A DNA stretch of 16,438 bases from Acanthamoeba castellanii str. Neff (lineage: Eukaryota; Discosea; Longamoebia; Acanthamoebidae). How positions within the stretch are numbered: the stretch's first letter is position 1; each line of letters starts with the position of its first letter. Of this stretch, positions 1 to 16,432 are shown in pieces. A program made the translations under genes and the position numbers. Location: assembly GCF_000313135.1 (NCBI RefSeq), contig NW_004457445.1, positions 141,424-157,861 of the forward strand, in the 5' to 3' direction. Under the pieces are notes generated by a model. It had not been told where the DNA came from and searched no databases. It worked only from the letters and a program-made list of their open reading frames with translations.

Positions 1-250
1 CCTCGGGGAAGAAATGGAGCTCGCTGTGCAGGACAGCACCGAAGGGATTAACGATCCTGAATTGGATGTCGAGCAGGCCACCGCGAGTCACAACGAATTC
101 GAAGGTGAAGTCCTCGCCCGGACGCTGCGACTTGTACTTGAAGCATTCGGTAGTGCGCGGCTCGATCTGCATCGTCATTCCATGTGCCACCTGGATGGCG
201 AGCAGCGCCACGGCCAAGATCAGGAGCAAACTGGACGTTGAGGCCTTCAT
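1..250 (-). CDS. p24/emp24/gp25L (TMED) family cargo receptor, 5' part only
   Basis: p24 proteins are type I membrane proteins that cycle between ER and Golgi in COPI/COPII vesicles and help select cargo. The ATG at 250-248 opens a frame that runs off the window after 83 codons. Residues 1-24 form a clear signal peptide (basic residue, then a Leu/Ala/Val-rich core ending AHG). The GOLD domain then begins: an E-P-x-x-x-E-C motif with the conserved Cys near residue 36, followed by alternating strands ending in the family-typical stretch VTRGGLLDIQFRIVNPFG. The transmembrane segment and cytoplasmic tail lie outside the window. The start is favoured because the signal peptide follows it directly. 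The 250 bp upstream hold a TGACGTCA palindrome. Domain assignment is from memory of the family; which p24 subfamily is not decidable. Confidence 0.85.
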   Translation of the reverse strand, partial: MKASTSSLLLILAVALLAIQVAHGMTMQIEPRTTECFKYKSQRPGEDFTFEFVVTRGGLLDIQFRIVNPFGAVLHSELHFFPE

Positions 251-1723: not shown

Positions 1724-3345
1724 TTAGTCGGAGTAGTCTGAGTGTCGGGACCGCCTGTCCTTGTGGTGGCGATCCTTTTTGTCCTTCTTATCTTTCTTCT
1801 CCTTCTTGTGCCTCTTCGAGTCCCGTTTGTCCTTCTTGTCCTTCTTGTCCTTCTTGTGCTTTCGCTTCTGCAGGTAAAAAAAAAGAGAGAGAAAAGGTGG
1901 AGTTGATAACGGCGCCTGGTGAGCATGGCGCGCCCAAAAGTGATGGAGCTGCGGAGGGGCAAGTGCCTTTCGCTTCTCGTCTTTGTTGGCGCGGGCGAGG
2001 ATCTTGAGCGCCTGCTTGAGGTCGCTGATCTGACCCACGGGCTCGGGTCTGTGTGCCACAGGCGCCGATGATGAAGATACGGCGTATCACGTAAGACGAA
2101 CGGCGAGGCAGAAGTAGGGAGGAAGACAGAACAAAGGGAAACAAGAAAACGTACGGAGGTGGCTCGTCGCCTCCCTCGGGCTCGGGGATGAGGTCGTATT
2201 TCTGACCGCCCGTGCTGTAGCACTCCGCGGCCAGGTGCCCACCCGCGCCGCACTTGGTACAGATCGTCGGCAATATCGCTCCTGCGAGGGGGGGGGAAGT
2301 GAAACGTGTGCGTGTTTGGTGATGCCGCGTCGTGTGCGTTCGTACCCAGTTCGATTCGCTTGGCTTCGCCGGGTCGTGGCTTCCTGCGCTGCGCGTTCTG
2401 TTCGAGTTCCACTGTAGAATCCGGATCAAGGCGATTCACACGCAACGTGATCAGCACAGATGCATTGCGCTACTCTGAGTACTCAAAGCTGGGGAGAGGC
2501 GTGCCATTGTTTGCGTCCAAGTCTTCGCCGGATGTCTGTGAGACGTACTTCATCGACAAACTAACCTTGCCGTCCTGTTGCCCGCACATCGAGTCAGATA
2601 CCGAAACGCAACACGCACACACGCACACACGCACACACGGAACGTACGGCGAGCGAGATGACTTTGACCCACACGGCCTCGCCCACCTCGACGATGGTGG
2701 GCAGGTCCTCGGCCTCGATGCGCGAGCCGCTCACCTGCGAGATGTGCACGAGGCCGTGGCGCCGCCGACCCTCCATCTCCACGAACACGCCGTAGTCCTT
2801 GATCGACGCCACCTTGCCCCGATGGATGCTGTGCAGCTCGGGCGGAGGTTCGTCCTCGCCCCGGTTGGGCGGACCTCGTCGCATGCCACCACCGCCTCCA
2901 CCATAACCTCCGCCGCCACCGTCGCCCTGATCGTGATCTCTTCCTCCTCTACCTGCGCGATGATGAAACTTGACGCGTCAATGGAGGCAATCAAAAATCT
3001 GAGAGATTTGGGGGGCAGTGTGCCTTCATCTTGGGCAGCGCCGCCTGATGCTTCCATGCGTTGCAGCATGCGTGCTCGCTCGGGATTCATGAATTTGAAG
3101 CGATCATCACTGCCGCCGCCATCGCTTCCGTGGCCTCTGCTGTCTCCACGATCATCCCTGTCGTCCCTGCCCCCACGTCGCCTATCCCTGTCGCCTCTAT
3201 CATCTTCATCGCGTCTGTGCCGTTCGCGATCCGGCGATCGCACGCGTTCCCTACCGTTGTCTCTGTCTCTACTGCGATCGTAGGAGTCCCTTGTGCGGTC
3301 GCGTCTATCCCAACGATCCTCATCTTCATCCCTTCGTCTGCTCAT
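1724..3345 (-). CDS. ZCCHC17/pNO40-like RNA-binding protein (S1 domain plus CCHC zinc knuckle)
   Basis: Exons: 3345-3024, 2952-2648, 2574-2505, 2411-2346, 2281-2155, 2048-1967, 1867-1724 (1116 nt, 371 aa). The family consists of nucleolar/ribosome-associated RNA-binding proteins; human ZCCHC17 is about 241 aa. Domains in order: an Arg/Asp-rich N-terminal extension (~1-130) with a Gly-rich stretch; an S1 OB-fold (HRGKVASIKDYGVFVEM through HGLVHISQVS, then a Lys-Val-Ser-Leu-Ser-Met-Lys strand in exon 3); a CX2CX4HX4C knuckle (CTKCGAGGHLAAEC) in exon 5; and a Lys/Asp-rich tail ending SDYSD. The exon 3-4 junction recreates the family-typical N-N-V-x-x-E-Q. Introns 1 (71 nt), 3 (93 nt) and 6 (99 nt) appear to start with GC rather than GT; the others use GTACG. 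The start at 3345 is preferred over an in-frame ATG ten codons upstream because it begins the charged region. Intron 1 has an alternative GT donor at about 3107. Confidence 0.85.
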
Positions 3346-3590
3346 TTTCTGGTATTTTACAATCAAAAAAATCATTTTCTTTTATTCCACGTTTTTTTAA
3401 GCTGCACGACCCTGCCGGCACTGCAGCGGCTGAGGGTCGGAGTCGTGGACGAGCACGCCCTGGCCGAAGAGCCACATGGGTGGTGTAGGTGAGCGGCACG
3501 GTCGTCCCACAAGGGCCGGAATGGAGAATTTCTAACATTGCCCGGTCCTGGTGGTGATTGAAAAACACTTCTCTCCTCGAAACAAAGTGT

Positions 3591-4789
3591 TCACTGCCGT
3601 GATGAAAGCGAGCAGAGTGCAATGGCGAACAGCTCCTGCATCGCCTGAGTGGGCAGCATATCCTCCAGATTTGTGAAATCGTCTCTGGTGTGTCGCACAG
3701 TGTGGAAAAAGATGAGTTGGTGTTGAGTTCGTGGTACCGCCACCACGTACCTGTCACGGGTCAGCACGACCAGGCAGAGCAGGGCCAGGTTCAAGGGACT
3801 TCTTTGGATGCCCGCGGCGTGCGTGGTGCTTCGGGATCGGCGCTCTTCGGCCTGCGCCACCGCGCGGGAAGAGTGTGCCCTGCGAAAGCGTCGGTCCAGG
3901 ATGTCGATAGGCGATGGTATGGGCTTCTTCCACAGCTTGCTCAGGCGTGCCTGCTCCTGCTTGCTGGGCACCAGCGGCGCCCCCAAAGACAACAACAGCG
4001 CAGCAACTTCGAACCACCCTGACAAGGCAACGACCGTGGCGTCAGTGGCCAGACCAAAGCAAGGGCTCTATAGGGCCGATTGGGGCAAGGGAGTACCGCA
4101 TCCGAGAGCAAGATGGATGGCCGTTTCGCCCCTGATGTTGCGCACGCGCATCAGCTTCTGCGCAGCCACTCGCCCAAAGCGTCCTTCCACCTGCTGCACC
4201 ACCATACCGACTCCTTCATATCTCTGCAAGTGATGTGCGTGTGCGTGTGCGGTTTCCGCATGTGCGCAGAAGTCAAAATTTTGTGCGTAGAAGAGTTTTG
4301 AGGGAGGCAGTACCCCTCCGATGAGAAGGTGGAGGAGGGTGTTGTTGTGCTCGTCGCGGCCCAGCAAACACGCCGATTCTTTCTCGACGGCAGCCCGGAG
4401 CGCCTCCAAATTGCGCAGCAGATCGAGGAATGTGCTCTTGTACCGGCGCGCCACGCGGACCACCTTGCCAAAGGCCAGCTGCGAACCATAGAGCGAGTGA
4501 TCAGACTGCCACACCATTCGACTGTGCCACGCTACGTTAGCGCATCGTACCGTCACAGTGTCGCGGATAAGCACGCGGCCCAGGTGAGGGCACACGTCAA
4601 AGGGCTCCACCACGAACCCAGCGAGCGGACGCAGCCGAACCTCGGCCACTGTTGACGGGCCGAATGAGGCGTTCACCAACAATGCGGCTGAGTGATAGAG
4701 TTCGGTGCTGGGTACCTTCGCCTGCACACACCTCACCCAGGGCTCCCCTGACTACATTCTGGCCTCGCTTGACACTGAGTATGGCCATT

Positions 4790-4833
<44 letters not shown>

Positions 4834-6996
4834 GACCGACGACAAGCGCAATCAGGCGTCAGAATGGCGACTGGAGTTGGTGGCCATGCGGTGCGACGCA
4901 ACCTTGCAGCCAACGCGAGCACCGTGACTGTGCACCGCCACGTCCTGGCCCACCGTCAGTACTCTTCGTCCCTGTAACGATACAAAGCAACACCGACCCC
5001 CATTGCGTGTGAACACATCAGCGCAGAGGCGAAGAGAGGTAGTGCTAGGACCTTGGCCGACACTGGATTGATGGCGCGCACAGAAACAGTGAATTCGGTA
5101 ACTGTCAATTCAAGCATCGTCCCTGCGTCTTCCCTGGCGTGCATCGCTACCATTCCTGTTGTCCAGCCTCCACCCGATCAGACGATTCCACCACAGCCTC
5201 GAAGGCGAAGAAGAACGAAGAGTGAAGAGCGAACTAACGAACCTGAGTGTAGGAACCGGGTGGCAGGTGTTTTGGTGGCAAAAACACAGAGGCAGCTACC
5301 GGCACTGGCCGACACCAGCGTCTGACCCACACACCGCGTGCGTGAAAAGAAGTCCTGAACTATGGCGGTGCGAGTGGTTGTGGCCTGGCGTACCTCATTG
5401 AATGACTCCGCACCTTCAGTAGAGATTATTGGCGCCGCACCGTTCCATATGCCGAGACGACTCTCCTGAGTTCGTGGATAGTATGCTAGATCCTGCCTGA
5501 GCTCACACAACCCAAGTTAATGCTCTACGTCAAGCAATGTCAAACAGTTGTCGGCTGTTGCTGGTCGTTGGGGGAACGAAGTAGGACCTGGGTCTAAAGT
5601 GCCCGGACAGGACGCGGCCGTAGGGGGCTGGGCAGCAGCCTGGTCTCCGCTTCACCCGCAGGAGGGCCTGGCGAAAAGGGGCAGCCGGCTGGTCCTTCTG
5701 CTGCTGGCGCGTTTTGTACAGTGGCAGCTCCTCCCGCCTGTGGGCCACTCCACCCTTCAGCCCATCGTGCCCGAATTGTGCAATGTGCCGTGCCGGTTGA
5801 TGACGCCGTACCGGATGTTCTCCAGAGCGTCGGCCATGCTGAGGCCCTTGGCGAAGAACGGACTCACAAACCCTTTGTCTTCCCACGCGCTTGTCACCAC
5901 CACGTGTATGTTCTGCCTGCGCGCCGTTGTGTGTGTCGTGTGTGTGTCGTGTGTGTCGTGTGTGCGTGTGTGTGGTGAGCGCTGAATGCAGATCAAAGGG
6001 AGGCGTGAAACCAGGACAGACCTCTGGAATCGCATTCGAAGTAAGAGGTTGACGACTTGCTTCTCTCGACTGCAGATGAGCGCTTCGTGTGCCTCCGTGT
6101 CCCAGTTATGAGCAAGCTCGCTCACCACAGCGTCTGCTTTGGCGAGCACCACAATGAGCTGCTCCATGCCCAAGCCCCTGGACGGACGCGACGGCCCCCC
6201 CCCCGCGGAGAGAGCAGCGCCAAACGGGTCAGTCCCATGTACCCAGGCACCAAGCGACAGAAGCCGGTACCTGGCGAGCAGGGCAGACTCGAACAGCGAA
6301 GCCTTGCCGCGGTTGGACATGCACGCCGCGAACTCCTCGCCCACCGCAGGCACCACCAGCAGCGCGTAGTCGGTCTGCAGACCCAGCCATAACCCCAGCG
6401 GGTTGATATGTGCGTGTGCGGTGCGTGCGTGTGTGCGTGTGGGCGGGAGAGCACCAATGATGCAGTGTGTATGCAGGCATGGGGGTAGTTGGTCAGCGAT
6501 GGCACGCTCACCAGAGACAACGGATACCGTTTGGTGTTGATCCGGTATCGTCTGGGCAGACCCAGCATGTGAGTGATGTGAAAGCAAGGAAAGGGCAAGG
6601 CTAGCGATCTAGGTACGTGGTGGTCATTGTGACGCCTCTCCTGCGCTCTCGCTCGCTTAGCCGCACCAGCTCGTGGAGCCGATCGTGCAGCTGAAGGAAA
6701 ACCTATGCCCAAGGTGGTTGGTGGAAACAACAGAGAGGAGGCGAACGAGCAGGTGAACGTACGTTGCCATGAGACATGAGCCGCGACACGACGCGCGGGT
6801 GTACAGCGCCAAAGGCGATCAGCATACGGCCGACCAGGTAGGCCTTGCCACTCTGGGGCGGACCCAGCAAAACCGCCTGCGACCATGTGCAGAAGCCACA
6901 CCACACAAAAGTTTGTTTGGACCGACCACTTGACGTGCCTGCAGAAGAAGGAGTGGAGTGAAAACGCACCTCAACGAGCACCTCCGTACGCTGCAT
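3591..6996 (-). CDS. EF1A/HBS1-type translational GTPase fold fused to ankyrin repeats; likely pseudo-GTPase
   Basis: Model of 18 exons: 6996-6970, 6876-6763, 6690-6617, 6551-6455, 6374-6271, 6177-6022, 5916-5812, 5737-5588, 5496-5394, 5321-5243, 5155-5052, 4971-4903, 4791-4737, 4687-4551, 4478-4314, 4223-4097, 4018-3751, 3684-3591; 2028 nt, 675 aa, all phases agree. Residues 1-226 are a G domain: G1 GPPQSGKA (14-21), G2 RGVTM (Thr68), DYALLVV, ALLARGLGMEQLIVVL and G5 TSA (199-201). Residues ~242-337 match domain II (GRVLSG, then a strand pair ending HSGMVAM). Residues ~345-470 match domain III (EFTVSVRAINP; HLGRVLIRDTVTLAFGKVVRV). Ankyrin-like repeats follow (NNTLLHLLIGG ~504; RGETAIHLALGCGWFEVAALLLSLGA ~544-569), then a basic tail. 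Family homologues keep DxPGH and NKxD; here these are SVPSL and AKAD. The start could lie further upstream, because the frame stays open for a few codons before 6996. Confidence 0.75.
4793..4836. repeat. (TG)n/(CA)n microsatellite inside an intron
   Basis: About 14 TG dinucleotides followed by TATGTGTATGTG. On the coding (minus) strand it is a CA tract that runs directly into the acceptor CAG of intron 12 of the GTPase-ankyrin gene, standing where a polypyrimidine tract would normally be. It is likely length-polymorphic. Confidence 0.9.
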
Positions 6997-10270: not shown

Positions 10271-10389
10271 GGATACGTCCATACTGCGCAGAAAGCACCG
10301 CTTCCCATCCGAACAGCGAAGTTAAGCTGCGCCAGGCGGTGTTAGTACTGGGGTGGGCGACCACCCGGGAATCCACCGTGCCGTATCCT
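10271..10389 (+). rRNA. 5S ribosomal RNA, copy 1
   Basis: The 119-nt sequence starts GGATACG and ends CCGTATCCT, so the two ends pair into helix I. The loop A/helix II segment, the CCCATCCGAAC motif of loop B/helix III, AAGTTAAGC, and the GGTGGGCGACC(A)CCCGGG region of helices IV-V are all present, including the internal Pol III control region. It matches my memory of Acanthamoeba 5S. A run of five T (10389-10393) gives a Pol III terminator. Position 8 (10278) is T where copy 2 has G, which loses the last pair of helix I. It is transcribed away from the FGGY kinase start 93 bp to its left. It is a dispersed copy; no tandem array is visible. Confidence 0.95.
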
Positions 10390-10538: not shown

Positions 10539-12156
10539 TCAATCAACAGGCGGTGGCTTTGGAAGCGTTGCCTGTGTCTGCTGGAGGAGTTGCATGAATG
10601 CGTGAAAGAGTGCTGCAAGCTGCTCGTTGAGGGCGCGCTCTTGCTGGATTCCCTCTTGATGATACTCAACAAGATTCCCAATCAACTTGACCATGTTGCT
10701 GTGGTATGATTGTTCCTCATCAGCCTATGGGAGAGGGAGAGCACATGCGCGCACAAAGGCATGTGAGTGAGCAATCAGCACCAGGCCAAAAAAAGAACAT
10801 ACCAATTGCTGGCGCTTCTGCTCACGTTCCTTGCGTGCCTGCTTCTGCTCCGCAGCAGCCTTGTGAGCAGCTGCACGCTCTTCATCAGCAGGTGCCTGGC
10901 GCTCCGATCATGCCACGACCTCACGGTCCCAAAGGGTCTGGAGGGCTACATGACCATGTGTGATGAGCTGCTGTAGCTCCTTCTGCTTGTTCTCATGCAG
11001 AATGCGCTCACTCTCACACAGTGCGGCATCCATCCTTGCCCGTGGCTTGAACAGCTCTGTAACAGAGAGGACAATTAACATTAAGAAGTAAAGACAAAAC
11101 AACAAGGAGAGGACGAATGATGTCAAGCGCTGTAGGTTGGCATAGTGGGTCTCACACTTCTCATTGGTAGCCTCCACAATGGGATGATGGTTCCTACAAA
11201 TGTAGGCCCAGATTTGCTCCTTTCTCTTGTGCAGGGACTTGACCATCATCTCAATAAGTGAAACTGAGGTCTCATGTGGCCAGATGACCTTCTTGCTGGA
11301 AGGCTTTGTGGAGAAACATGAGAGAGAGCATAGATAATAAAATAGATATCATATTATATTATTAGTATATATATTATTATGTAATATTATCACCAACAAA
11401 TTGATATTAACTTTTAATATTTCTCATATAATTATTATAAACTTTATCATTTCGTGTGTGGATTGAGAACTTTAAATTTTTTAAATTATAAATATTTATC
11501 AATAAAAGGTAGTAAAAATAACAATATTATATCAAAAATAAATAAATTAATATATTAAATTTTGATTTCAAAAATTTATCAAATCATTTTTTCAAAAAGG
11601 TATAAAAATAAAAAATTGAAAAAAACAAAATAAATAAAAGAAAAATTATAACATAAACAAGTTTTAAAATTAATTAAATACTAATTCAAATAATAATAAA
11701 CATTTTATTTTTCCCTAATAAGAATGATAATAATAATTATAAAATTTAGAATAAATTAAATTGGCCAACACCAACTCAACAAGAAGAGGAAGATAAATAC
11801 CCCTGTGGCAAAGAGGTAACATCCTCCTCCACATTGCTTGGTCTATAAATCACAAGTAGAAAACAAGAAGAAGAGGAAGAGAAAGGCAGATTACCACTGT
11901 GGCAGTGGTGGTGGTGTGAGATGCTGGCATTTTGTGGTGGATGTAGAGGATGAGCCACCACAGCTGTGCCCCTCTTTGTTGTTGATGTTGAGGTGACTGT
12001 TCCTGCTGAGATGGTAGCAAATGGGCCACTCACTGGTGCAAGTTGGGTGGAGGAGTTGTAATTGCACTGAGGAGAAGAAGGAGCAGGAAGAGGAGTGGCA
12101 CCTCTGCTTTGCATCATACATTGCTCTTGCCAAGGAGAAGGGGAGGCCATTAACAT
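10539..12156 (-). pseudogene. Myb/SANT-like (trihelix-type) coiled-coil protein gene with an in-frame stop
   Basis: Probable exons: 12156-12034, 11963-11895, 11842-11801, 11303-11129, 11056-10803, 10724-10539 (849 nt, 283 codons, phases consistent). The 5' exons are tentative. The fourth exon encodes KKVIWPHETSVSLIEMM, then ...KRKEQIWAYI..., ending ...CETHYANLQ. This has the spacing of a Myb/SANT-like DNA-binding domain: Trp start, L-I-E helix, I-W helix, K-C-x-x-x-Y-x-N-L recognition helix. The later exons are a Glu/Gln/Lys/Arg-rich coiled coil ending in a Pro-rich stop. A TGA at 10910-10908 interrupts the coiled coil in frame; coding resumes at once (SERQAPADEERAAA), so CGA to TGA is the likely lesion. 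The intron after exon 3 is ~497 nt and nearly all AT-rich. The gene lies wholly between the facing 5S genes. Myb-like proteins occur in Harbinger-type transposons, but no transposase is seen. Confidence 0.55.
11330..11760. other. Extremely AT-rich island (~85% A+T or more)
   Basis: By line-by-line estimate only about 10-20% of bases are G or C, against well over half in flanking genes. It is dominated by A-runs, T-runs and ATT/TAA words, with stops in all frames, no recognisable coding sequence and no clear tandem unit. In the gene model it fills the long intron between exons 3 and 4 of the Myb-like gene. Base composition alone suggests inserted foreign or mobile DNA. Confidence 0.85.
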
Positions 12157-12263: not shown

Positions 12264-12268
12264 AAAAA
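12264..12268 (-). terminator. Pol III T5 terminator of 5S copy 2
   Basis: AAAAA on the plus strand directly downstream of the minus-strand 5S gene. Confidence 0.75.
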
Positions 12269-12386
12269 GGATACGGCACGGTGGATTCCCGGGTGGTCGC
12301 CCACCCCAGTACTAACACCGCCTGGCGCAGCTTAACTTCGCTGTTCGGATGGGAAGCGGTGCTTTCTGCGCAGTATGGCCGTATCC
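12268..12386 (-). rRNA. 5S ribosomal RNA, copy 2
   Basis: 119 nt, identical by eye to copy 1 except G at position 8, which restores the full 8-bp helix I (GGATACGG with CCGTATCC). It faces copy 1, so both transcripts run toward the middle of the segment. The 55-bp upstream flank is the same as that of copy 1 and may carry external promoter signals. The ZPR1 gene ends 156 bp to the right. Confidence 0.95.
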
Positions 12387-12542: not shown

Positions 12543-14047
12543 TCATGGCTGCTGGGTCTCAGCGGGCTTTACTTCCTCGTTCGACTTGGCTTCGGCCTCC
12601 TTGTCGCCTTTGTCGTCATCGTCCTCTTCTCCGTCCTCCCGGTAGTTCTCGGTCTTCATGTCGTTGAGGCCGAGATCCTCGTTCTGGTCCCACGAGCGTT
12701 CGTACTCCTCGACGGTCATGTTGGGGTCCTCGTCGGGCGCGTAGATGTTCTGGAGGTAACTGTTGGCCACCGGGTCGTCGAGCACCAGCGTGAAGGGTCC
12801 GCTTCGGAAGGCCAGAAGGTCGTCGAGGCCCTCGATGAGCGAGACCATACGGCCCGCGGAGGCGGCGCTGTCGCCGCGCAGGAAGGGGTTGTTCTTGAGG
12901 TCGTCGCGGATGGTGGTGAGGAGGCCCTCGATGGTGCTGAACTTGCCGCCGAGGGTGCCGGGGACGAGGCCCAGCTCGAGCTCGGGGATCTCGAGGCCGG
13001 CGGTCTCGGACTTGAGCACGTCGCGGTTGAGGTCGTCGGCGTTGGTGAGGCGCAGAGTGATCTTGCAGCCCTTGGGGGCGATGGCGCCGCCGGACTTGAC
13101 CTCGTTGGACTTGTAGCCGCAGGCCTCGCACATAAAGGCCATGATGATGACGTCCTTGAAGTGGGGGATGTGGGCCACGCACATGCGCGTCTCGCCGCGC
13201 TTGCCGCACAGGCCGCAGGTCTCCGGGAACTTCATCACCTCCTCGAGGTGTTCGGCGCCGCCTTCCTCCGCGCGCTTGACCAGCGCCTCGGCATCGGCAC
13301 CGGACAGGAGTCCACCGCCGCCACTCTTCTTCGCCTCCTTCTGGCCTTCCTCCTCCTCCTCTCCTCCTCTTCGTCCTCGCCGTCTTCACCGTACGCCTGC
13401 GAGATGCCGAGAGCACGGTTCTGTTCGCGGTTGCGCTCGTAGTGGGTGATGGTGAGGTTGGGGTCGGCAGCGGGGGCGGACGGGTTCTCGACGAACGAAT
13501 TGCCGGCAGGATCGTCGATGATGAAGGTGAACTTCTTGCCTCCGTGCTTGAGCTCCTCGAGCTTGGCGGTGAAAGCGTCGATTTGGGCCGCCACATTGGG
13601 TGCCGCTGCCCTTCGCTCCTCCTGGCCCTGGTTGAGACCCTCGATGGCCTGCATCAGGAATCCCTCGATCGTGTTGAGCGTTCCCTTCTGGGTCAATGGC
13701 GGAATCTCGAAATCCAATTCCGGAATGTAGATGCTGGCTGCATCCGATTTCACCACCTGGCGGTTGAGATCGCCCTTGTCGGTGACCACCAGCTTGTAGA
13801 TGCAGCCCCGTTCGGCGATGGAACCGCCGAATTGGATCTCGTTGTTACGGAAGCCGCAGTGCTTGCAATGGAAGGACATGAGGATTATCTCCTTGAACGA
13901 GGGGATCTTGGTGAGAAGGAGATTGGTCATGCCGTTCTCGTGGCAGTTCATGCAGAGGCTCTCGATGCGCGTGGGTCCCTCATCGGCTCCGAGATCGGCG
14001 AAGATGGGGTCATTGTTGTCCTGGGTCTCAGTCTGCTGTCCTTCCAT
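12543..14047 (-). CDS. ZPR1: ZPR1 zinc-finger protein, single exon with a one-base frameshift
   Basis: ZPR1 is an essential eukaryotic protein that binds eEF1A (chaperone role) and, in animals, receptor tails and SMN. It consists of two copies of a zinc finger plus beta-barrel module. N-terminal half (14047 to ~13360): CMNC...CKHCG finger, then GDLNRQVVKSDAASIYIPELDFEIPP and TIEGFL. C-terminal half (~13360-12543): CGLCGKRGETRMC...CEACG finger, then NADDLNRDVLKSETAG, TIEGLL and DDPVANSYLQNIY, ending in an acidic tail. The frame changes by one base inside a GAG-repeat coding for Glu (13351-13366, break near 13360/13361). Restoring one G would give ~501 aa, near the family size (yeast ~486, human ~459). 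No plausible intron explains it, so it is a sequencing error or a recent mutation. The ATG at 14047 precedes the first finger by ~30 residues and no introns are needed elsewhere. Confidence 0.92.
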
Positions 14048-14782: not shown

Positions 14783-16432
14783 ATGTTCTGGGCGAAAGCC
14801 GCACAACATTCCTACCATACGATCTTCGAACCCACCTACCGCGCCTACAGCCAAAACCAAAAAACCGACTCTCCCTCGGCCTTCCGCCTTCATCTGACAT
14901 CTCATCTCCTCAAAAACGGCAACGACTCTCATCTCGCCGACAACCACCCTCACCTCGCCCATCCCTCCCGCACCTCCACCGAATCCGAAGAGGAGCACGT
15001 GAAGATGAGCAGAAGCAACAACAACGGCAAAAGGCACAAAAACCACGCTGGCCACAAAGCCAGCAAACATCGTAAAAACAATAAGGGCAACAAAGCCAAC
15101 AACCACAACAACTCCTCCCACCACGCGACTCATGGCAAACGCCGCATCAACAGAGCCCCTCAAGGAACGGGCGAAGGCTGGTATGCCGTGGCTGCCATGC
15201 AGGGGCGTCGGCCCCACATGGAGGACACGTACAGCGTCGTGATTCCCGACACGACTGGCCCCACCGGCGGCGACCTCCACTCCCTCTTCGGCGTGTTCGA
15301 CGGACACGGCGGCAAGGTATCATCATTTCTTTCTTCTTCATTTCTTCGCCGCGCTCCTATGGCACGTGCTGCGTAGTGTATGCGTGTGCTATGTGCTGAC
15401 TCGCCTTTCCCTCCTGCAGAAAGTGTCGCAGTTCTTGAAGGACAACTTGCTGCCCGCCATCGTCGAGGCCTACGCTCAGGAGAAGGCGGGCGAGGAAGAT
15501 GACCCCGACCACCAGCGCACCCCCGCGGAGAGGCTGCAGGCCATCCTCCCGCGCACCTTCCTCAGGATCGATGAGCGCGCCATGGCCGACGACCAGCTCT
15601 CCGGCAGCACGGCCGTCGTGGCCATCCTCACCGAGAACGACGTCGTCGTAGCCAACGTGGGCGACTCGCGGGGCATCATCTACCGCTCCAACGAGGCCGC
15701 CAGCCAGCGCATGCGCGAGTCCGGCGACAGCGGCTACGACAGCAGCAACGACGCCTCTCTCCACTCGACCGCGAGCGAGGACGACGCCACCGAAGACGCC
15801 ACCGACGAGGAAAACGACACCGACACCGACGAAGACCTGGACGACGCGGTGCCCAATGCCAAGGGTGCCAAGAAGCAGCAGCAGCAGCAGCAGCAAAAGC
15901 AAAAGCCTGATGGGTCGCAGAAAAAGAAGAAGAGGAAGTACAAGAAGAAGCCCGAGGAAGGACCCGTGGGCAAGATCGGCCGATGGCAGGCGCTCTCGGT
16001 CGACCACAAGCCGAACCGGCCCGACGAGAGGGAGCGGGTGGAGCACTGCGGCGGGCGCGTGACGAAGAGGACCAACGATGTGTGGCGCTTCCAGAGCGTG
16101 CTCGCCGTCTCCCGCGCGTTCGGCGATCACGGGCTCAAGGTGGGTGCCGGCGGCTCCGCACTCACTGCGAACCCGGAGATCAAGATATTCACGCGCCAGG
16201 AGAACGACAAGTTCTTCGTGTTGGCTAGGTAAACACACGCGCACACGCGCACACGCGCACACAACACCGCACGCATGAAACTCATCAACCTCCCCCCTCT
16301 TTTGTAACCATCAGTGACGGCTTATGGGACGTCTACACCAACGAACAGGCCGCGAAGGTCGGCCGCAACGTTCTTCTGCAGAACCCCAAGAACCCCGCCC
16401 AAGCAGTACCGTCACTCGTCAAGCTCATCTAA
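14783..16432 (+). CDS. PP2C-type Ser/Thr protein phosphatase (PPM family), apparent early stop
   Basis: Mg/Mn-dependent phosphatase with exons 14783-15316, 15420-16228, 16315-16432 (486 aa to the stop). Introns are 103 and 86 nt, GT-AG. Residues 1-~130 are a His/Asn/Lys-rich extension. The catalytic core shows GWYAVAAMQGRRPHMEDTYSV (metal-site Glu-Asp), FGVFDGHGG (metal Asp), SGSTAVVAIL, VANVGDSRGIIYR, LSVDHKPNRPDERERVEHCGGRV, LAVSRAFGDHGLK and LASDGLWDV (metal Asp). Between VGDSRGIIYR and LSVDHKP lies a ~95-residue insertion with acidic Ser/Thr/Asp/Glu repeats, eight Gln (seven in a row) and a Lys-rich stretch. TAA at 16430-16432 falls where the family continues toward the GSxDN metal motif, so either the gene is truncated or one base is wrong; the window ends six bases later. 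The in-frame ATG at 15005 is an alternative start, but GC-rich third positions upstream favour 14783. Confidence 0.85.

What the first reader, a model, noticed from the sequence alone, without database searches (positions are those of the whole stretch)
3591..6996. Translational-GTPase fold (EF1A/HBS1 type) fused to a C-terminal ankyrin region
Eighteen short exons, invisible in any single reading frame, join in consistent phase to a 675-residue protein: G domain, two EF1A-like beta-barrels, then ankyrin repeats. Landmark matches to EF1A/HBS1/eRF3 run the full length: ALLARGLGMEQLIVV in the G domain, GRVLSG in domain II, FTVSVRAINP and LGRVLIRDTVTLAFGKVV in domain III. The domain III strand runs straight into the helices before the first ankyrin repeat, within one exon (4478-4314), so two neighbouring genes read as one is unlikely. 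I know of no described EF1A-family protein with ankyrin repeats. It could be a ribosome- or tRNA-related regulator that uses ankyrins to bind a partner.
Basis: partly seen in the sequence, partly recalled or inferred. Interest (0 to 1): 0.88.

Follow-up and report, generated by a model that had tools for sequence, protein, structure and literature searches.

The report
Inactive-looking EF1A fused to ankyrin tail
An amoeba-like genome carries a small gene family in which the protein-synthesis factor EF1A has lost its GTP-binding signature residues and gained an ankyrin-containing tail, so it probably works as a binding platform rather than as an enzyme.

Summary
The finding holds. On the minus strand, 18 exons (6996-3591) splice in phase into a 666-residue protein. 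A family profile matches archaeal EF1A over all three domains in one stretch (residues 8-455, E 2.4e-38; eRF3 and HBS1 weaker). The same genome holds two full-length paralogues (59% and 44% identical); 13 intron positions are shared by all three. A 658-residue relative, orthologous to one paralogue, lies on contigs of at most 2148 bases and reads from EF1A into the same tail, which I take as a transcript. Two neighbouring genes misread as one is therefore very unlikely. dN/dS against the nearer paralogue is about 0.19-0.37. The ankyrin part is small: one clear repeat and a probable second, below Pfam's cut-off, supported by the family profile. Domain III and the tail show the lowest dN. Best reading: a nucleotide-independent adaptor on an EF1A fold, working like yeast Ski7 without being one. 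Partner and function are untested.

The parts
3591..6996 (-). whole coding span, 18 exons, 666 aa
   Evidence: spliced model, 17 of 17 introns GT-AG, phase kept; paralogues share 16 (C48) and 13 (C72) of its 17 intron positions exactly
5812..6996 (-). exons 1-7 (6996-6970, 6876-6763, 6702-6617, 6551-6455, 6374-6271, 6177-6022, 5916-5812): degenerate G domain, residues 1-229
   Evidence: Pfam GTP_EFTU 51.3 bits, cut-off 26.5
6838..6864 (-). G1 position: GPPQSGKAY where EF1A has GHVD[AS]GKST
   Evidence: alignment with own-genome EF1-type proteins; A after GK in 4 of 4 family members
6494..6508 (-). G3 position: SVPSL where EF1A has DAPGH (Asp, Gly and catalytic His lost)
6132..6143 (-). G4 position: AKAD where EF1A has NKMD (Asn lost)
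5243..5737 (-). exons 8-10 (5737-5588, 5496-5394, 5321-5243): domain II, residues 230-341, with an insertion relative to EF1A; most divergent part
4449..5155 (-). exons 11-14 (5155-5052, 4971-4903, 4791-4737, 4648-4551) and start of exon 15: domain III, residues 342-459; lowest dN
   Evidence: Pfam GTP-eEF1A_C 25.1 bits in the window protein (cut-off 27, just below); best E 2.1e-9 among the three family members and 34 bits in P0005; dN 0.17 W-C48
4314..4478 (-). exon 15: last domain III strand joined to LLGRDEHNNTLLHLLI (probable first, degenerate ankyrin repeat)
   Evidence: uninterrupted exon in window and same join in both paralogues
3969..4139 (-). exons 16-17 (4223-4097, 4018-3751): clear ankyrin repeat, residues 533-563
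   Evidence: family-profile hits to ankyrin structures, e.g. I-kappa-B-alpha 1nfi E 4.1e-7; Pfam Ank 16.7 bits, below its cut-off of 21.1, matched in 2 of 3 members at E<=1 and not in P0005
3591..3803 (-). conserved C-terminal segment (RSPLNLALLCL...NLEDMLP, end of exon 17, and exon 18 3684-3591)
   Evidence: conserved in 4 of 4 members; no Pfam family at E<=0.01

Best explanation
The gene belongs to a three-member family of EF1A-derived pseudo-GTPases. Shown: an EF1A-type G domain, domain II and domain III in one chain with an ankyrin-containing tail; loss of residues that in EF1A-type GTPases hold magnesium, gamma-phosphate, catalytic water and guanine; selective constraint, with lowest dN in domain III and the tail. 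Inferred: the protein does not cycle on GTP. It keeps the EF1A shape as a fixed scaffold, docks through domain III and the tail, and bridges or competes for a partner of the translation or RNA-surveillance machinery, while the ankyrin tail recruits a second protein. That is the logic of yeast Ski7, reached from another starting point.
For: EF1A homology along residues 8-455, E 2.4e-38. Paralogues C48 and C72 with the same architecture. Shared intron positions. Contig-encoded C72 orthologue, 90% identical to my C72 model. G1, G3 and G4 changes of the same kind in 4 of 4. W-C48 dN/dS NG86 0.337/0.919, YN00 0.312/1.535, ML 0.324/1.73; dN by part (NG86): G 0.40, II 0.60, III 0.17, tail 0.25. The genome separately holds EF1A-type, eRF3-type and HBS1-type genes with intact motifs (subfamily names by my reading), so this is an addition, not a replacement. 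Ski7 precedent: altered G motifs including Ser at the catalytic His position (PMC4509514, sections 9-11 read).
Against: P-loop Gly-Lys, G4 Lys-Asp and the G5 Ser remain, and switch I Thr remains in the window protein and C48, so some nucleotide binding cannot be excluded; Ski7 binds GTP despite its changes. No partner, localisation or expression data for the window gene itself. dS values are high, so dN/dS is rough. The protein lies far below the curated EF1A cut-offs (TIGR00483 88.4 bits against 540.1; PRK12317 96 against 502), as expected for a diverged member, but no proof of function. Pfam Ank is below cut-off in the window protein and not reported in P0005.
Confidence: 0.6

Rival explanations
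1. An active but unusual EF1-type factor: it still binds a nucleotide with a rewired pocket and delivers a tRNA or tRNA mimic to the ribosome, with the ankyrin tail giving specificity (a SelB-like logic, with an extra C-terminal domain).
For: GPPxxGKA is fixed in 4 of 4 and G4 reads [AT]KAD in 4 of 4 rather than varying freely, as if a pocket were kept; a C-terminal extra part after domain III recalls SelB.
Against: Asp and Gly of G3 and Asn of G4 lost in 4 of 4; domain II divergent (dN 0.60), with an insertion.
Confidence: 0.15
2. A regulator outside translation (for example cytoskeletal or ubiquitin-linked) that merely reuses the EF1A fold; the tail is an interaction module.
For: eEF1A has non-translational partners (recalled). 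Domain III and the tail, not the catalytic core, show the lowest dN.
Against: No linking domain found: Pfam reports only Ank and Ank_2 in the tail at E<=1, and no SOCS box.
Confidence: 0.2
3. A decoy of eEF1A in a bacterivorous host: the dead copy is bait or sensor for bacterial effectors that act on eEF1A.
For: Legionella glucosyltransferases modify eEF1A at Ser-53 (PMC3245282, start of abstract in search listing), and amoebae are natural hosts (PMC8043192, start of abstract). Dead copy plus extra interaction domain is the form that integrated decoys take in plants (recalled).
Against: The stretch around Ser-53 (motif recalled) is not conserved: no Ser at the matching column in the 3 family rows, by my reading; the C72 row is uncertain there and P0005 was not in that alignment. 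No signalling domain.
Confidence: 0.04
4. A decaying pseudogene or two genes read as one.
For: Degenerate motifs; low Pfam scores for the tail.
Against: Open in phase over 18 exons, two paralogues with the same layout, dN/dS well below 1, contig of an orthologue open through the join.
Confidence: 0.02

Closest known systems
eEF1A / aEF1A
   Same: three-domain core, best profile match (E 2.4e-38 to 1jny); family 24-29% identical to two EF1A-type proteins of the same genome, C207 and C125
   Different: G1 Ser, G3 Asp/Gly/His, G4 Asn lost; domain II insertion; ankyrin-containing tail; far below curated EF1A cut-offs
Ski7 (yeast, HBS1-derived)
   Same: trGTPase-like protein with altered G motifs including the catalytic His (PMC4509514, sections 9-11); exosome cofactor, an adaptor in that sense (PMC4509514 and PMC4933942, starts of abstracts)
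   Different: Ski7 has its Ski-complex and exosome binding region at the N-terminus (PMC4933942, start of abstract) and still binds GTP; here the extra part is C-terminal and G1, G3 and G4 have lost the residues named
eRF3 and HBS1
   Same: same superfamily, weaker matches (best E 3.7e-23 and 7.7e-20)
   Different: no N-terminal extension: the P-loop begins at residue 14
SelB
   Same: EF1-type core followed by a C-terminal extra region
   Different: SelB match is marginal (TIGR00475 16.7 bits, cut-off 242.25); Pfam finds ankyrin-like and no SelB domain in the tail
Ankyrin-repeat proteins
   Same: one clear repeat, profile hits to I-kappa-B-alpha and NF-kappa-B p100
   Different: only one or two repeats; below Pfam's cut-off

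Membership tests
EF1A-type translational GTPase (homology) | G domain, domain II, domain III collinear with EF1A | tested here: met
   one hmmsearch stretch 8-455 against 1jny 4-417, E 2.4e-38
EF1A-type translational GTPase (activity) | G1 GxxxxGK[ST], G3 DxxGH, G4 NKxD | tested here: not met
   GKA, [SN]xPS[LQ], [AT]KAD in 4 of 4 family members; intact in own-genome C207, C125, C120 and C51
EF1A-type translational GTPase (activity) | GTP binding and ribosome-stimulated hydrolysis | not testable with these tools
   needs biochemistry
EF1A proper (NCBIfam equivalog) | curated score cut-off of TIGR00483 | tested here: not met
EFL | EF1A replacement with intact motifs, almost always without eEF1A | tested here: not met
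   EF1A-type genes C112, C93 and C207 are present; motifs lost here
HBS1 / eRF3 / Ski7 | N-terminal extension before the G domain | tested here: not met
   P-loop at residue 14 of the window protein, 19 and 17 in the paralogues
HBS1 / eRF3 / Ski7 | best match among EF1 subfamilies | tested here: not met
   EF1A 2.4e-38, eRF3 3.7e-23, HBS1 7.7e-20; the 7-row tree puts the family on its own long branch and does not settle its origin
Ankyrin repeat | at least one repeat by profile | tested here: met
   family tail profile against PDB: ankyrin and designed-ankyrin chains from 8.5e-14 (a sum over many repeats), I-kappa-B-alpha 4.1e-7
Ankyrin repeat | Pfam Ank gathering score | tested here: not met
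   16.7 bits against 21.1 in the full protein, 17.7 on the tail alone; 2 of 3 members match at E<=1, P0005 does not
Ankyrin-SOCS (ASB) adaptor | SOCS box at the C-terminus | tested here: not met
   no SOCS_box in 3 tail ends with max_evalue 10, though HMMER's filters drop most matches above 0.1; none in the genome at E<=1, one candidate scored. A BC-box-like LxxxC pattern was only a visual impression

The most novel reading that the evidence does not exclude
A new subfamily of EF1-type translational pseudo-GTPases, seen so far in one amoeba-like genome and one unnamed contig set, in which domain III plus an ankyrin tail became the working part: an independent invention of a Ski7-like adaptor from an EF1A-type ancestor, used to control translation or RNA surveillance.
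Probability: 0.4. Interest if true: 0.75.

Novelty: new variant of a known kind. Interest (0 to 1): 0.6.

Why it matters
EF1-type factors are among the most conserved proteins. The survey of the superfamily that I consulted (PMC4342817; found passages and section 7 read) describes variable N-terminal extensions for the eukaryotic EF1 paralogues and C-terminal extensions for SelB, and its main text does not contain the word ankyrin. A constrained, duplicated EF1A derivative without GTPase signatures shows which parts of the EF1A fold are useful without nucleotide switching, and gives a natural separation-of-function experiment.

Tried and rejected
Two neighbouring genes joined: rejected (exon 15, paralogues, contig of an orthologue). 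Pseudogene: rejected (dN/dS, open frames). SOCS-box tail: suggested by eye, not supported. A weak WAPL match to the last 50 residues of two members (E 0.06 and 0.077) is treated as chance. Viral or prokaryotic relatives: 160 pattern stretches in viral contigs and 41 in genome contigs, none a relative by tblastn; each scan rested on two short peptide patterns. Other eukaryotes could not be searched as such. Protein database: first search none at E<=1e-3 among 7997 candidates; the profile search gave 4 proteins at E<=10, SelB/CysN-type by their domains and names, best E 0.018; the third, on the C48 tail region, gave P0005 alone at E<=10 among 6634 candidates. Tail elsewhere in the genome: 13 matches at E<=10, 12 of them in the three genes, one more (C134) at E 0.046 with two stops; counts are lower bounds. 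Structure: both AlphaFold models too weak to judge domains II, III and tail; Foldseek hits to HBS1L, aEF1A and Ski7 probably rest on the G domain, though aligned ranges are not shown.

Limits of the models. My C72 model is wrong or uncertain around residues 50-80 (exon 3), as P0005 shows. The C48 first exon and the exon near its C-terminus were chosen by hand. C48 and C72 each contain one GC-AG intron in my models. These touch the C72 rows of dN/dS, which are saturated and unused, more than the W-C48 row. YN00 failed for some parts. Of 12 regions fetched, those of C124, C175 and C78 (L047-L049) were scanned for motifs but not modelled, and L050 was not used. C112 and C93, partly withheld, were left out of the tree; C44 was left out of the first tree and included in the second, where two forks stayed open. 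Literature searches for the fusion: (open-licence papers only); nothing describing it in the listings.

Full report
Observation. The window lies in contig C122 of an unnamed 38.4 Mb genome. The organism was not identified; composition and intron style look like Acanthamoeba to me, but this was not tested. On the minus strand, 18 exons from 6996 to 3591 give an open frame of 666 residues with 17 GT..AG introns of 60-111 bases.

Homology. Pfam reports GTP_EFTU at 51.3 bits (cut-off 26.5), GTP-eEF1A_C at 25.1 (cut-off 27, just below) and Ank at 16.7 (cut-off 21.1, below) for the final model. NCBIfam EF1A models match at 88-96 bits, far below their cut-offs of 502-540: a relative of EF1A, not EF1A. 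A profile of the three family members reaches 1jny over residues 8-455 in one stretch at E 2.4e-38, eRF3 at 3.7e-23 and HBS1 at 7.7e-20. Four EF1-type proteins of the same genome, independent of the window, splice-align to the locus with scores 105-127 against shuffle maxima of 59-73 (20 shuffles each) and 49-77 on the opposite strand.

Paralogues and transcript. A search of the genome with the draft protein found two further loci with matches from the G domain to the tail. Modelled exon by exon they give proteins of 647 (C48) and 662 (C72) residues, 59% and 44% identical to the window protein. The window gene has 17 introns, C48 18, C72 19; 16 are at the same column and phase in window and C48, 13 in all three. 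A protein database search with the C48 tail region found one protein, P0005, 658 residues, E 7.5e-58, on three contigs, the longest 2148 bases. The C72 gene spans 350724-354561, about 3.8 kb, so a contig of at most 2148 bases that encodes the whole protein must lack the introns; I take it to be a spliced transcript (inference; the source is labelled only lgn, and a processed gene copy is not excluded). P0005 is 90% identical to my C72 model over 649 aligned positions and 43% to the window protein over 615. Its uninterrupted frame crosses the join between domain III and the tail.

Selection. For window against C48 (630 codons) dN and dS are 0.337 and 0.919 by NG86, 0.312 and 1.535 by YN00, 0.324 and 1.73 by ML. 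dN by part (NG86): G domain 0.40, domain II 0.60, domain III 0.17, tail 0.25. dN/dS by part is 0.55, 0.33, 0.21 and 0.27 by NG86 and 0.21, 0.26, 0.16 and 0.13 by ML (ratios computed). dS is high, so ratios are rough, but each is below 1. Rows against C72 are saturated and are not used.

What is lost. In the alignment with own-genome EF1A-type, eRF3-type and HBS1-type proteins and with P0005, the P-loop GHVDAGKST reads GPPxxGKA in 4 of 4; DAPGH reads SVPSL, NVPSL, NTPSQ, NTPSQ; NKMD reads AKAD, TKAD, TKAD, TKAD (window, C48, C72, P0005). The Ser/Thr that holds magnesium, the G3 Asp and Gly, the catalytic His and the G4 Asn are therefore gone (roles from general knowledge of G proteins and PMC4509514, sections 9-11). 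Gly-Lys of the P-loop, Lys-Asp of G4 and the Ser of G5 stay. Switch I Thr stays in the window protein and C48. For comparison, yeast Ski7 has Ser in place of the catalytic His and still binds GTP (PMC4509514). The present family looks further from a working switch.

The tail. A profile of the three tails finds ankyrin structures in the PDB. The best E-values sum over many repeats of designed proteins and overstate the case; I-kappa-B-alpha (4.1e-7) and NF-kappa-B p100 (2.8e-5, tail positions 28-111) are fairer. One repeat (residues 533-563) is clear, the one before it (from residue 489) is degenerate, and a conserved end follows (RSPLNLALLCL...NLEDMLP) that matches no Pfam family at E<=0.01. 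Against this, Pfam Ank is reported in 2 of 3 members at E<=1, below cut-off in the one whose score was shown, and not in P0005. In the genome this tail was found only in the three genes apart from one match at E 0.046 with stops. Two AlphaFold runs with few sequences gave confident stretches only within the G domain of the first; in the second the tail comes out helical at pLDDT about 35-68, which neither supports nor refutes ankyrin.

Origin. In a seven-row tree the three paralogues form one clade (100/100), apart from the EF1A pair (91/93) and the eRF3/HBS1 pair (85/90) of the same genome. The long branch and the absence of outgroups leave the exact origin open; profile scores point to EF1A. 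No relative was confirmed in viral contigs or in prokaryotic genome contigs.

Mechanism. Shown: EF1A fold by sequence, loss of GTPase signatures, constraint that in dN is tightest in domain III and the tail. Inferred: no GTP switching, a fixed scaffold, docking by domain III and the tail, recruitment through the ankyrin part. I put the pseudo-GTPase reading at about 0.9 and a role in translation or RNA surveillance at about 0.5; the best explanation as a whole, mainly its adaptor logic, is scored 0.6. The rivals (active but rewired factor, non-translational regulator, decoy, artefact) are weighed in their own section.

Known or new. EF1-type proteins with degenerate G motifs have a precedent in Ski7. 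An EF1A-type member with a C-terminal ankyrin-containing tail was not found in my paper searches (listings only), which cover open-licence papers only. I therefore call it a new variant of a known kind.

Noticed in passing
window 12546-14047 (-): A ZPR1 gene with two zinc-ribbon plus jelly-roll modules, same strand, about 5.5 kb upstream. ZPR1 and eEF1A occur together in papers on eEF1A folding (listing only); the neighbourhood may be chance.
   Followed up: partly
window 10271-10389 (+) and 12268-12386 (-): Two 5S rRNA genes in inverted orientation on either side of a low-GC stretch (32% GC at 11001-12000).
   Followed up: no
window 15366-16229 (+): PP2C-type protein phosphatase exon.
   Followed up: no
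window 2597-2884 (-): S1 RNA-binding domain next to an Arg/Asp/Ser-rich frame upstream (2731-3375), possibly an RNA-processing protein.
   Followed up: no
window 5-250 (-): emp24/p24 family match at the window end.
   Followed up: no
G000 C125 (L043): An EF1A-like gene, apparently without introns, with intact G motifs, 55% identical to the intron-bearing EF1A-type gene C207: the EF1 superfamily has expanded in this genome.
   Followed up: partly
G000 C44 (L046): A very divergent EF1-type gene that keeps GKS, DSPGH and NKMD, on a long branch.
   Followed up: partly
L039, upstream of the C48 paralogue: A frame ending in LPRELVHMLLLCLG...LPLQP lies just before the C48 gene and may be the end of a neighbouring gene.
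   Followed up: no
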